NCBI GenBank assembly: GCA_030019335.1
Contig: JASEET010000002.1
Location: forward strand, 145,355-209,354
Direction: 5' to 3'
Origin: Candidatus Bathyarchaeia archaeon
Lineage (GTDB): Archaea; Thermoproteota; Bathyarchaeia; Bathyarchaeales; Bathycorpusculaceae
DNA: 64,000 nt
This document shows, in pieces, positions 44,370-56,425 of the stretch (its first letter is position 1; every line of letters begins with the position of its first letter). The position numbers and the translations under genes are program-made. A model generated the notes under the pieces. It was not told the origin of the DNA. It saw only the letters and a program-made list of their open reading frames with translations, and searched no databases.

Positions 44370-46448
44370 ATGACACTCTGGAGGAGAAGTTTGTTGCTTC
44401 CGTATGCACCGTGGCTTTGCTGGCTCATCCCAATTATCGGCACCGCAGTCACACCGTTAGTTGGTGCAATTCGTCGAAAATTCAGCAGTTATCTTGCTGT
44501 GTTGTCCATCGGAATGAGTGCTCTCTTCTCTTTTTCGATGATCCCAGACATCTATTTTGGAACAGCTCAGCCCGATTTGACGATTCCATGGATTTCTAAC
44601 AGCATTATTCAAGTCGGTGTGTACATTGATCCATTAAGCGTGCTTATGGCAAGTGTAATTACTTGTATAGGATTTCTAGTTACAGTTTTCTCCGTCGCCT
44701 ACATGCAAGAAGAGCCAAGTTTGGCTAGGTTCTGGTTTCTCATACAGCTTTTCATCGGCGGATACGTAGTGATAGTGATGGCAGATAACCTCCTCTTCAT
44801 GTTCATAGGTTGGGAAATTGTTGGAATCTGCTGCACCGGCCTTGCAGCTTTTTGGTACAAAGACCCCAAAAAGGCGCATATAGGCTTGAAAACTTTCCTC
44901 GTCCTCCACGTTGCAGACGTGCTCTTGCTCGTGTCTATTTTGATAATATACGCCTACTCTCACACTCTTAACATTATGGAGCTCTCACAAAACAACAACT
45001 GGATGGGAGAATTATCAAGGTCTGGCTTGCTTTTTATTACAGCCCTCATGTTCTTTGGTGGGGCTGTAGGAAAGGCAGCTCAGTTTCCCTTGCAAGAATG
45101 GCTTCCGGACGCACTAGCTGCCTCACCTTCCTCTTTCAACGCTCTAACTGAGTGTTTGGCTGGTCCTTTTCTTATTGCTAGAGTTCTCCCAATTTTCCAT
45201 GAAGCTTCCCTCATGGGATACAGCGACATGGTTAACTTCTTTCTAGTCATGACGTTCGTGGGTGCACTCACTGCTGTGATTAGCGCTCTTATAGCAATGG
45301 TCCAAGCTAATATATTCAAGGTCCTCTCGTATTGCATTTCAAGCGTGATCGGATACATGATGGCAGCTTTTGGTTTAGCAGGATTAATGGCCGACATGAG
45401 CTGGGGATACTTAGCCGGCACCTTCCTTCTTACAGTGGACGCCTTCCTCTCAGCACTGCTTTTCCTCACTGCAGCCTACATTTCCTACGCAGTTGGGTCG
45501 GACAATTTGCACCATATGGGCGGATTCAAGAGTCGAATCGCGCACAGAAGCATGGAAGTGGGAGCTCTTGCTCTAGGAGGCATACCGCCGCTAAGTGGCT
45601 TTTGGTGCACGAACTGGATCCAAACAATCGCCTGGGATTTTGCGGGAGAGGCTGGCATGAAAGGACAATTCATGCTGATGATATCGGGCTACGTAATTTT
45701 TGCTCTGCTAATAATCGGAGCTGGAATAACCGCCTTTTACGCGCTTAGAATGATGGGACTCGTCTTCAGAAAGGAGAGTTACGGATCGGAGGAGAAGGTT
45801 ATCAGAAGGCCTCCATCTTTAATGCGAATTTCACTTGCTGCAACTCTTGTAATAACTGCATTCTTAGATTTCCTAGCACTTCTTTTAATCCCGAGCTTTA
45901 ACAAGTTTCTCCTACCTCTCTTAGGCACACTAACTTTCAGCAATATTGTCGACGTTCTGATGTACATCGTTCCCTCCATAAGTACAGTTTTAACATGTGT
46001 AGCAGTAGCAGTTGGAGGCTATCCCGCATACCAGTTATACGTAGCGCACCGAGTCAACCCAGTTAAGTTAATTGAGGAACACCGATTCTTAGGGAAAGCT
46101 TATGGTTTTCTATGGAAGCGATGCTACATCAACACGCTTTACCACAAGGTCGCAGATGGAACCAACGCATTTTCCAACATCGCACATAAACACTTAGAGC
46201 GTAGTATTGACAGATTGAACTATGGTGTTGCAGGCTTATTTAGACGGTTATCCCGTGTCATGTATAAATATCCGGAGCTTAGAGGCATCGACGCACTAAA
46301 CTATTTTCTAGCTCATTTTGTCACATCATTTACTCGACGATTCAGAAAAACGCATACAGGAGTGTTATCTTACAACATGCTGACAGCCTTTGTCGGAGTC
46401 ATAATATTAATAGTTCTACTGCTTCTATTTGGAGGAGTCATTCCCTAG
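44370..46448 (+). CDS. NuoL-like antiporter-type subunit (paralog B)
   Basis: 692 aa; FIGWEIVGICCTGLAAFWYKDP, QEWLPDALAASPSSFNALTECLAG; similar to the 35745 ORF. Confidence 0.9.
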   Translation: MTLWRRSLLLPYAPWLCWLIPIIGTAVTPLVGAIRRKFSSYLAVLSIGMSALFSFSMIPDIYFGTAQPDLTIPWISNSIIQVGVYIDPLSVLMASVITCIGFLVTVFSVAYMQEEPSLARFWFLIQLFIGGYVVIVMADNLLFMFIGWEIVGICCTGLAAFWYKDPKKAHIGLKTFLVLHVADVLLLVSILIIYAYSHTLNIMELSQNNNWMGELSRSGLLFITALMFFGGAVGKAAQFPLQEWLPDALAASPSSFNALTECLAGPFLIARVLPIFHEASLMGYSDMVNFFLVMTFVGALTAVISALIAMVQANIFKVLSYCISSVIGYMMAAFGLAGLMADMSWGYLAGTFLLTVDAFLSALLFLTAAYISYAVGSDNLHHMGGFKSRIAHRSMEVGALALGGIPPLSGFWCTNWIQTIAWDFAGEAGMKGQFMLMISGYVIFALLIIGAGITAFYALRMMGLVFRKESYGSEEKVIRRPPSLMRISLAATLVITAFLDFLALLLIPSFNKFLLPLLGTLTFSNIVDVLMYIVPSISTVLTCVAVAVGGYPAYQLYVAHRVNPVKLIEEHRFLGKAYGFLWKRCYINTLYHKVADGTNAFSNIAHKHLERSIDRLNYGVAGLFRRLSRVMYKYPELRGIDALNYFLAHFVTSFTRRFRKTHTGVLSYNMLTAFVGVIILIVLLLLFGGVIP

Positions 46449-46478
46449 GAGGAAAATGGCCTGATCCTTCATGCTTCA

Positions 46479-47903
46479 TTGTTGGCAATTATTCTTCCAA
46501 TAATTTCAGCAATTTTCATCTACGTTTTTGGAAAGTATGCTGAAAGGTATGTCGGATGGATAGCGACTGCAGCGGCATCGCTGTCCGTTTGTATGATTCT
46601 TTCTATGGTAACAGACGTTATCGAAAAGAGACTCATACACGATACTTATGCTTGGATTCCGTCAATTAACCTTAAATTGGGCTTTATGGTTGACATGGTC
46701 AGCTTTCCTATTGCATTGATCGTTGCAGTTGTAAGCGCTCTTTCATGTTTCTACTCCATCAAGTACATGGAGAATAAGCGTGGGCAAACCGGCTATTACG
46801 CGAACCTGTTGCTTTTCATGGCTGGCATGATTGGGGTAATGCTTTCTGCAAACCTTATACAATTTTATCTCTTCTGGGAGCTGATGCTGATACCATCTTA
46901 TTTCCTGATAGCTTCGTGGGGAGTGTCTAAAAAACGGTTAACCATCGGATTCAAATACTTCATATTTACGCACATCGGAGCGCTTTTCATGCTCATGGGA
47001 ATACTGTCAATCTACGTATTCACCGGCACCTTTGATTTCGCCGAATTGCCACGAGTCTCAGCCGATATCCCTTCAACCAGTATACTTACAGTGTTTGTTC
47101 TGTTATTAATCGGGTTTTGCGTGAAAATGGCAATCTTCCCAGTGCACACATGGCTTCCAGACGCACACGCTGAAGCCCCTACACCCATAAGTGCTATGCT
47201 TTCCGGCGTCATGATTAAGTGTGGAGCATACGCCTTCGCAAGGATTCTTCTTTCCGGGTTTGGTCAAACAGTATTACAGACATCAGATACTTTGGCGATT
47301 CTCGGCGTCGTCACCATGATTTATGGAGGACTTATGGCTCTTGCTCAAACGGACATCAAAAGGTTATTAGCATACTCCAGTATCAGCCAGATGGGTTACA
47401 TCTTCTTTGGACTTGGAGTATACTCAACCATTGGGGCAACCGGAGCCCTCTTTCATGTGGTGAACCATGCTGTTTGTAAAAGTCTTCTCTTCATGTGTGC
47501 TGGCGTAATCATGCATCAAACGGGAACACGCAACATCAGAAGGCTTGGGGGCTTAGCCGATAAGATGCCTATAACTTGTGCCGCATCCTTGATAGGTGCC
47601 TTATCTCTAGCTGGAACCCCTCCCCTAAACGGTTTCTGGAGCGAATGGATGATTTTCTCAGGAGGAGTCTTCTCTGGAAAGATTCTCATCACCACAATCG
47701 CTGTAGTTAGTACAGCAATCACCGCTGGATACTACCTATGGTTCCTGTGGAGAGCATTCTTCGGAACCACTCCAAAAAACTTAGAAAACACAAGGAAGCC
47801 ATCTTGGCTGATGCGTATTCCAATAATTGTATTGGCTGTGATTGCGGTGGTTGTAGGAATCTGGCCAGACCTTGTGTTAAGGCTTCTATCAGCTCCATTT
47901 TAA
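46479..47903 (+). CDS. NuoM-like antiporter-type subunit (paralog B)
   Basis: 474 aa; PVHTWLPDAHAEAPTPISAMLSGVMIKCGAYAFARI; HVVNHAVCKSLLFMCAGVI. Confidence 0.9.
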   Translation: MLAIILPIISAIFIYVFGKYAERYVGWIATAAASLSVCMILSMVTDVIEKRLIHDTYAWIPSINLKLGFMVDMVSFPIALIVAVVSALSCFYSIKYMENKRGQTGYYANLLLFMAGMIGVMLSANLIQFYLFWELMLIPSYFLIASWGVSKKRLTIGFKYFIFTHIGALFMLMGILSIYVFTGTFDFAELPRVSADIPSTSILTVFVLLLIGFCVKMAIFPVHTWLPDAHAEAPTPISAMLSGVMIKCGAYAFARILLSGFGQTVLQTSDTLAILGVVTMIYGGLMALAQTDIKRLLAYSSISQMGYIFFGLGVYSTIGATGALFHVVNHAVCKSLLFMCAGVIMHQTGTRNIRRLGGLADKMPITCAASLIGALSLAGTPPLNGFWSEWMIFSGGVFSGKILITTIAVVSTAITAGYYLWFLWRAFFGTTPKNLENTRKPSWLMRIPIIVLAVIAVVVGIWPDLVLRLLSAPF

Positions 47904-56076: not shown

Positions 56077-56080
56077 AGAA

Positions 56081-56425
56081 TTGGCTTTTGTGAAAGAAGC
56101 GTTAAAACAGCTGTTTCGAAGGCCAGCCACGTTGAAGTATCCCTACGAAAAGTTAACCCTGCCGAGAGACTTCAGAGGCCGTCCAATTTGGGACATGGAA
56201 AAATGTATCGGCTGCGGACTCTGCTTTGATGTGTGTCCTTCAGGGGCCATTAAGATGATTGGAAAAGGATTGGAGGCGGAAATTAAACATTATGTTGACC
56301 GCTGTATGTTCTGTGGACAATGCGCGGAAACTTGTCCAAAAAACGCTATTACAATGAGTGAAGAATACGAGTTAGCAGGGTTCGACCGTTCGAAAATGCT
56401 TTACGAATATAAAAGGGATACTTAA
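56081..56425 (+). CDS. NuoI-like 2x[4Fe-4S] ferredoxin subunit
   Basis: CIGCGLCFDVCPSGAIKM and CMFCGQCAETCPKNAITM. Confidence 0.92.
   Translation: MAFVKEALKQLFRRPATLKYPYEKLTLPRDFRGRPIWDMEKCIGCGLCFDVCPSGAIKMIGKGLEAEIKHYVDRCMFCGQCAETCPKNAITMSEEYELAGFDRSKMLYEYKRDT

What the first reader, a model, noticed from the sequence alone, without database searches (positions are those of the whole stretch)
44370..56425. Catalytic group 4 [NiFe]-hydrogenase with a near-complete complex I-like membrane arm
The NuoD-like protein keeps both cysteine pairs for NiFe binding (RICGICSDAH near the N-terminus, DPCFACMDR at the C-terminus), which true complex I NuoD proteins have lost. The small subunit has the Ech/Mbh-type GGCNGCDIE motif. 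The neighbours are complex I-like: NuoA, C, H, I, split J, K, L, M, N. No NuoE/F/G is present in the window. This is a hydrogenase/complex I intermediate architecture, probably ferredoxin-dependent and ion-pumping.
Basis: partly seen in the sequence, partly recalled or inferred. Interest (0 to 1): 0.8.

Follow-up and report, generated by a model that had tools for sequence, protein, structure and literature searches.

The report
Complex-I-like hydrogenase with rewired pump subunit
This archaeal (Bathyarchaeota) gene cluster encodes an already described kind of hydrogen enzyme that is built like the first complex of our respiratory chain, but its outermost ion-pump subunit has lost nearly all the residues thought to let protons out, which would allow a direct test of how this family of machines pumps.

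Summary
Window 44370-56425 encodes all eleven complex I-type subunits (J split) with a catalytic [NiFe] large subunit (CGIC...DPCFACMDR, 26-aa C-terminal extension) and an Mbh-type small subunit. NuoF-like and FrhB/FpoF-like genes are absent from the genome. The D tree, an AU test (p = 0.018), an AlphaFold model and Foldseek all place D outside quinone-type Nuo or with hydrogenases. Similar catalytic complexes also occur in Asgard archaea and many bacteria.
Two things go beyond that paper. (1) NuoL of this clade lost H254, K305, H334, H338, K342, K399 and D400 (E. coli numbering), the proposed proton switch, relay and exit. It kept E144/D178/K229, gained invariant acids (E261, D357, E396, D500), and is under purifying selection. 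Of 120 homologues, 112 share this pattern; close relatives of the same catalytic core carry an intact NuoL. (2) The locus also holds a second L'/M'/N' set plus broken K', C' and L'' fragments. M' groups with a cysteine-less, quinone-type complex.
Pumping itself is inferred, not shown.

The parts
53948..55117 (+). HfoD: catalytic [NiFe] large subunit (C67/C70, C357/C360; 26-aa C-terminal extension after R363)
53029..53451 (+). HfoB: small subunit, proximal [4Fe-4S] of hydrogenase type (CNGC, not the CC of complex I)
53448..53951 (+). HfoC: NuoC-like
52692..53027 (+). HfoA: NuoA-like
55069..56076 (+). HfoH: NuoH-like; likely start 55114; E-channel acids kept
56060..56425 (+). HfoI: 2x[4Fe-4S], predicted ferredoxin entry
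50136..50393 (-). HfoJ N-terminal half (split J)
49858..50139 (-). HfoJ C-terminal half (start approximate); assigned by position and by counterparts in relatives, no Pfam match
49547..49861 (-). HfoK: NuoK-like; E36 kept, E72 lost (as in nearly all related archaeal complexes compared)
47965..49533 (-). HfoN: antiporter-like; likely start 49464
46479..47903 (+). HfoM: antiporter-like, canonical key residues kept (Q at the H322 site, as in relatives)
44370..46448 (+). HfoL: distal antiporter-like subunit with lost H254/K305/H334/H338/K342/K399/D400 and gained E261, D357, E396, D500
43592..44050 (+). ArsR-type helix-turn-helix regulator; a similar gene lies between two L' genes in relative G015
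35745..37787 (+). L': second NuoL-like gene, sister to the degenerate L clade (signature EDK-VRHDSE)
40070..41692 (-). M': second NuoM-like gene, of the family found in quinone-type complex L111/L112
41705..43168 (-). N': second NuoN-like gene, 63% to N
43182..43369 (-). K' pseudogene: frameshifted, N-terminal half lost; intact in metagenome locus L110
56786..57130 (-). C' fragment: NuoC-like, C-terminal half missing
32731..32850 (+). L'' fragment: about 37 residues of a third NuoL N-terminus

Best explanation
The genes encode an Hfo-type energy-converting [NiFe] hydrogenase. Reduced ferredoxin gives electrons to the two clusters of HfoI. They pass to the proximal cluster in HfoB and the NiFe site in HfoD, where protons become H2 (or the reverse, ferredoxin reduction by H2 driven by the membrane gradient). 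HfoH/A/J/K/N/M couple this to ion movement. Inferred step: the distal subunit HfoL no longer works as the canonical proton outlet. It keeps the ion-pair half (E149, D183, K235) but has lost the His switch, N-side lysine, bridging histidines, central lysine, terminal lysine and exit aspartate, and has instead fixed acidic residues. It therefore either contributes no pumped proton (fewer ions per H2, fitting the small energy span from ferredoxin to H2) or uses another path or cation. L', M' and N' are retained parts of a second, quinone-type or mixed complex whose core is gone from this genome; whether they join Hfo is open. Shown by sequence: gene set, cysteines, phylogeny, residue losses, selection. 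Inferred: electron donor, direction, pumping, stoichiometry, fate of the extra set.
For: All subunits present; 4 Cys and Mbh-type small subunit; D tree and AU test; model pLDDT 89, Foldseek best hit HycE, Mbh TM 0.87/0.90; quinone-site His38/Tyr87 of Nqo4 replaced by K19/G68 (alignment); maturation genes hypD, hypE, hypF and HycI type; no NuoF or FrhB/FpoF domain; conserved gene order in several families. Residue losses in 112 of 120 L homologues against 21 intact archaeal L proteins, and also in HMMER alignments to Nqo12 and E. coli NuoL; dN/dS of L 0.15-0.18.
Against: No biochemistry exists for any 4g enzyme (PMC7886697). Ion specificity and direction are unknown. Loss of relay residues is read from alignments, with no structure of L. 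HycC of E. coli FHL also lacks the usual antiporter lysine (PMC9474812), so partial degeneration of an antiporter-like subunit is not unique. HydDB was not run, and true FpoD was missing from the tree.
Confidence: 0.85

Rival explanations
1. It is a quinone- or F420-linked Fpo/Nuo respiratory complex with a chance remnant of hydrogenase motifs.
For: Full complex I subunit set; NCBIfam names D as NuoD barely above one cut-off (365.9 against 360).
Against: All four Cys and the extension are conserved in the clade; AU p = 0.018; D scores 309 against a cut-off of 600 for FpoD; quinone-site His/Tyr absent; no FpoF or NuoF domain in the genome. Real quinone-type complexes of this lineage look different: CC in B, RICNVDSF and MDIWPLDADR in D.
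Confidence: 0.03
2. L', M' and N' are not relics: they assemble with HfoABCDHIJK as alternative or additional pump modules, giving two isoforms or a longer arm.
For: Intact frames under purifying selection (dN/dS 0.12-0.18); same locus, with an ArsR-type regulator; M' and N' keep most canonical residues (N' lacks the K247 equivalent), and L' keeps H334 and has E at the K399 site.
Against: K' beside N' is a pseudogene and C' and L'' are fragments. M' belongs to the clade of a different, quinone-type complex. Relatives with the same Hfo lack M'. A lone M' occurs in a genome in which no D was found, itself 86% complete.
Confidence: 0.35
3. HfoL has been converted from a proton to a Na+ (or other cation) path: basic relay residues replaced by invariant acidic ones.
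For: E261 in 111/111, E396 in 112/112, D500 in 110/111 L-type homologues, and D357 in all, while five basic relay positions are lost.
Against: No known Na+ site of this form; the Na+ module of Mbh lies in other subunits (PMC7886697); no structure of L.
Confidence: 0.25

Closest known systems
Hfo, the Fpo-like 11-subunit hydrogenase of Bathyarchaeia (Loh, Herve and Brune 2021, PMC7886697), HydDB group 4g
   Same: Same 11 subunits, intact L1/L2 motifs, no FpoFO or NuoEFG, same lineage.
   Different: Here three divergent transcription units, LM(+)/NKJJ(-)/ABCDHI(+), instead of a single Fpo-like order. NuoL lost its proton relay; this is not described in the parts of that paper read here. A second L'M'N' set and pseudogenes lie alongside.
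Mbh, membrane-bound hydrogenase of Pyrococcus furiosus (group 4d, 6cfw)
   Same: NiFe site, small subunit motif, D fold (TM 0.87/0.90).
   Different: Mbh has an Mrp-type Na+ module and fewer antiporter-like subunits; here A, J, K, L, M, N of complex I type.
FHL-1 of E. coli (HycE, 7z0s)
   Same: Best structural and top PDB sequence match of D; C-terminal extension after DPC..C.DR.
   Different: FHL has only two membrane subunits (HycC, HycD) and a formate dehydrogenase.
Fpo-like/Nuo quinone-type complex of metagenome loci L111/L112
   Same: Shares the M' family, and N' groups with its N.
   Different: Its D lacks all four Cys and its B has CC; it lies beside polyprenyl synthase and methyltransferase genes.

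Membership tests
Group 4 [NiFe] hydrogenase | Both CxxC motifs (L1, L2) in the large subunit | tested here: met
   CGICSDAH and DPCFACMDR, invariant in close relatives
Group 4 [NiFe] hydrogenase | Fold and phylogeny with hydrogenases, outside the Nuo clade | tested here: met
Group 4 [NiFe] hydrogenase | NiFe maturation genes in the genome | tested here: met
   hypD, hypE, hypF and a HycI-type protease; hypA/B/C not searched
Hfo (Fpo-like 4g hydrogenase) | Eleven complex I-type subunits A, B, C, D, H, I, J, K, L, M, N | tested here: met
Hfo (Fpo-like 4g hydrogenase) | No FpoFO or NuoEFG input module | tested here: met
   PF01512 and PF04432 absent from the genome; NuoE, NuoG and FpoO not searched by model genome-wide
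Hfo (Fpo-like 4g hydrogenase) | Gene order as in Fpo/Nuo | tested here: not met
   Three divergent units, conserved in this clade. Order is not essential to the type, so filed as a variant.
Hfo (Fpo-like 4g hydrogenase) | HydDB subgroup 4g assignment | not testable with these tools
   HydDB not available
Complex I-type proton pump (NuoL) | Conserved H254, K305, H334, H338, K342, K399, D400 | tested here: not met
Fpo/Nuo respiratory complex | Cysteine-less D with quinone-site His/Tyr; CC in B | tested here: not met
Energy-converting hydrogenase | H2 turnover coupled to ion transport | not testable with these tools
   needs biochemistry

The most novel reading that the evidence does not exclude
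A natural complex I-like hydrogenase that conserves energy although its NuoL subunit lacks the whole proposed proton exit route, so ions must leave elsewhere (M, N or the E-channel) or as another cation through a rewired L. This contradicts a NuoL-only exit for this branch of the superfamily.
Probability: 0.4. Interest if true: 0.75.

Novelty: new variant of a known kind. Interest (0 to 1): 0.5.

Why it matters
The hydrogenase itself is a known type. What matters is the pump arm. Whether protons leave complex I only through NuoL ('ND5-only', PMC10212512) or through each antiporter subunit (PMC9271201) is disputed. This clade offers natural enzymes with nearly the same catalytic core (76-87% identical D in G017, G093 and G100) with either an intact or a degenerate NuoL, so measuring ions per H2 in the two would bear directly on that question. 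Relics of a quinone-type arm in the same locus also suggest subunit exchange between hydrogenase and respiratory-type complexes, the kind of step thought to have produced complex I.

Tried and rejected
A first model of D with 12 sequences was poor (pLDDT 56); 95 sequences gave 89. A first L tree used a frame-shifted E. coli NuoL by mistake; it was rebuilt correctly. The idea that L'/M'/N' are recent copies of L/M/N was rejected: identities are 46, 40 and 63%, and M' sits in another clade. The idea that loss of NuoK E72 is special to this clade was rejected: it is shared by nearly all related complexes compared. Loss of the NuoN TM8 lysine equivalent is likewise widespread. The C-terminal extension is not universal: fused C-D relatives in the same family end exactly at DPCFSCTDR. 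Paper searches for a report of degenerate NuoL in hydrogenases found none, but most subscription papers are not held.

Full report
What is there. Window 44370-56425 lies on contig C22 of a 1.64-Mb genome. The best-named hits of D are Candidatus Bathyarchaeota. The region encodes L, M (+), N, K, J split in two (-), then A, B, C, D, H, I (+). Pfam and NCBIfam agree on the subunit types except the C-terminal half of J, which has no Pfam match and is assigned by position and by counterparts in relatives. The arrangement is not a local accident: the same three divergent units recur in relatives L038, L039 and L050-L052, and single-strand or re-shuffled versions in L053, L056, L057 and L200.

Catalytic core. 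D carries CGIC and DPCFACMDR and a conserved 26-residue tail after the arginine. This resembles HycE; cleavage of that tail by a HycI-type protease is established knowledge for HycE and inferred here. The best PDB sequence matches are HycE (7z0s) and MbhL (6cfw) for D, and MbhJ for B, with CNGC in place of the CC of complex I. In the HMMER alignment the Thermus quinone residues His38 and Tyr87 (identity of those residues from general knowledge) fall on K19 and G68. The AlphaFold model (pLDDT 89) matches HycE best and Mbh at TM 0.87/0.90, 2.0 A; complex I 49-kDa subunits score nearly as high, so the fold alone does not decide between the two. In a 66-row tree, D sits in a Bathyarchaeal 4-Cys clade, while Thermus, bovine, E. 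coli and three cysteine-less metagenome proteins form a separate clade with support 100/99. Forcing D and its two nearest relatives into the latter is rejected, p = 0.018. The genome has hypD, hypE, hypF and a HycI-type protease beside a group 3-like hydrogenase. It has no NuoF domain and no FrhB/FpoF C-terminal domain.

Known or not. Loh et al. 2021 (PMC7886697) described exactly this type, 'Hfo', in Bathy-6 genomes: 11 Fpo-type subunits, intact L1/L2 motifs, subgroup 4g, proposed ferredoxin coupling. I could not tell whether their sequences belong to the window's clade or to the fused C-D clade (L058-L064, L071, and Candidatus Bathyarchaeum tardum, L226). Further catalytic complexes with A, J, K and three antiporter-like subunits are common in Omnitrophota, Elusimicrobia, Aminicenantes and other bacteria, and related ones occur in Asgard archaea and Methanomethylicia.

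New point 1, NuoL. Compared with E. coli NuoL, the window's L lacks H254 (four-residue deletion), K305 (F316), H334 (L353), H338 (D357), K342 (S), K399 (T414) and D400 (N415); it keeps E144, D178 and K229. Two HMMER alignments against Nqo12 and NuoL show the main losses independently. Of 120 closest homologues, 112 share the pattern and 8 have the L' pattern. In all 21 archaeal L proteins of the comparison set, K305, H334 and K399 are intact. Invariant acids appear instead: E261, D357, E396 and D500. dN/dS for L is 0.15-0.18 against relatives, much like N and M. H254 has been called a strictly conserved switch joining K229, K305 and K342 (PMC13358369). K399/D400 is the proposed outlet (PMC9271201), and exit through NuoL only is central to the 'domino' model (PMC10212512). 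HfoM keeps the canonical residues. The L tree makes the degenerate L proteins one clade (support 100), but on the D tree the window's closest relatives include G093 and G100, whose L is intact. G017, with 87% identical D, also has an intact L. This points to exchange of L modules between similar cores. A caution: HycC of FHL also lacks a conserved antiporter lysine (PMC9474812).

New point 2, the second set. L' (35745-37787), M' (40070-41692) and N' (41705-43168) are 46, 40 and 63% identical to L, M and N. K' beside N' is broken, C' (56786-57130) and L'' (32731-32850) are fragments. An intact K'-N'-M' exists in metagenome locus L110. M' belongs to a clade (support 100) with M of L111 and L112, which encode a cysteine-less D, a CC-type B, polyprenyl synthase, a methyltransferase and, in L112, a group 1-like hydrogenase (the names of these neighbours are my reading of the sequences). 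D of L112 matches complex I proteins best. M' orthologues are rare: among 260 genomes of the class only one has a close (89%) copy, alone, with no D found in that 86%-complete genome. L' is closest to two tandem L genes in G015, which flank an ArsR-type gene like the one at 43592-44050. M', N' and L' are under purifying selection (dN/dS 0.12-0.18), so they are probably used, but with what partner is open.

Mechanism. Established for the family: ferredoxin to FeS to NiFe to H2, coupled to ions. Shown here: the parts for it. Inferred: that HfoL does not release protons in the canonical way, and thus fewer ions per H2 or another cation.

Limits. HydDB, a multisubunit model and wet-lab tests were not possible. 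The tree lacks authentic FpoD. L losses rest on sequence alignments.

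Noticed in passing
L112:1-15000 and L111: Metagenome contigs with a cysteine-less, quinone-type complex I (B with CC) next to polyprenyl synthase and methyltransferase genes; L112 also has a group 1-like [NiFe] hydrogenase pair.
   Followed up: partly
L060, L061, L063, L071 (relatives, fused C-D large subunit): A second Bathyarchaeal hydrogenase type with C and D fused whose large subunit ends exactly at DPCFSCTDR, so it needs no C-terminal cleavage.
   Followed up: partly
L058, L059, L063, L071, L226, L264 (N subunits): N subunits of the fused C-D type carry E, D and D where NuoN has K217, K247 and H305: apparent charge reversal of the central axis, on a long branch.
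   Followed up: no
L282:5176-6783 (G218): Orphan M' gene (89% to window M') in a single-contig genome (86% complete) in which no NuoD-like protein was found.
   Followed up: partly
window 31469-32596: Paralogue of the CDP-alcohol phosphatidyltransferase gene at 51368-52495 with one in-frame TGA stop (59% identical), directly before the L'' fragment: the region looks prone to segmental duplication.
   Followed up: partly
G017:C14, G100:C15 (L305, L047): Hfo relatives whose arm locus holds only N and L antiporter genes next to K, J, J, A, with no M found nearby.
   Followed up: no
window 1756-6327 and 24217-27594: Formylmethanofuran dehydrogenase subunits and HdrA2 with a polyferredoxin-like gene lie in the same window, in keeping with C1 metabolism on ferredoxin.
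   Followed up: partly
window 57679-58194: Open frame with an LIEGEGS motif resembling a LAGLIDADG endonuclease next to the C' fragment; no Pfam match.
   Followed up: no
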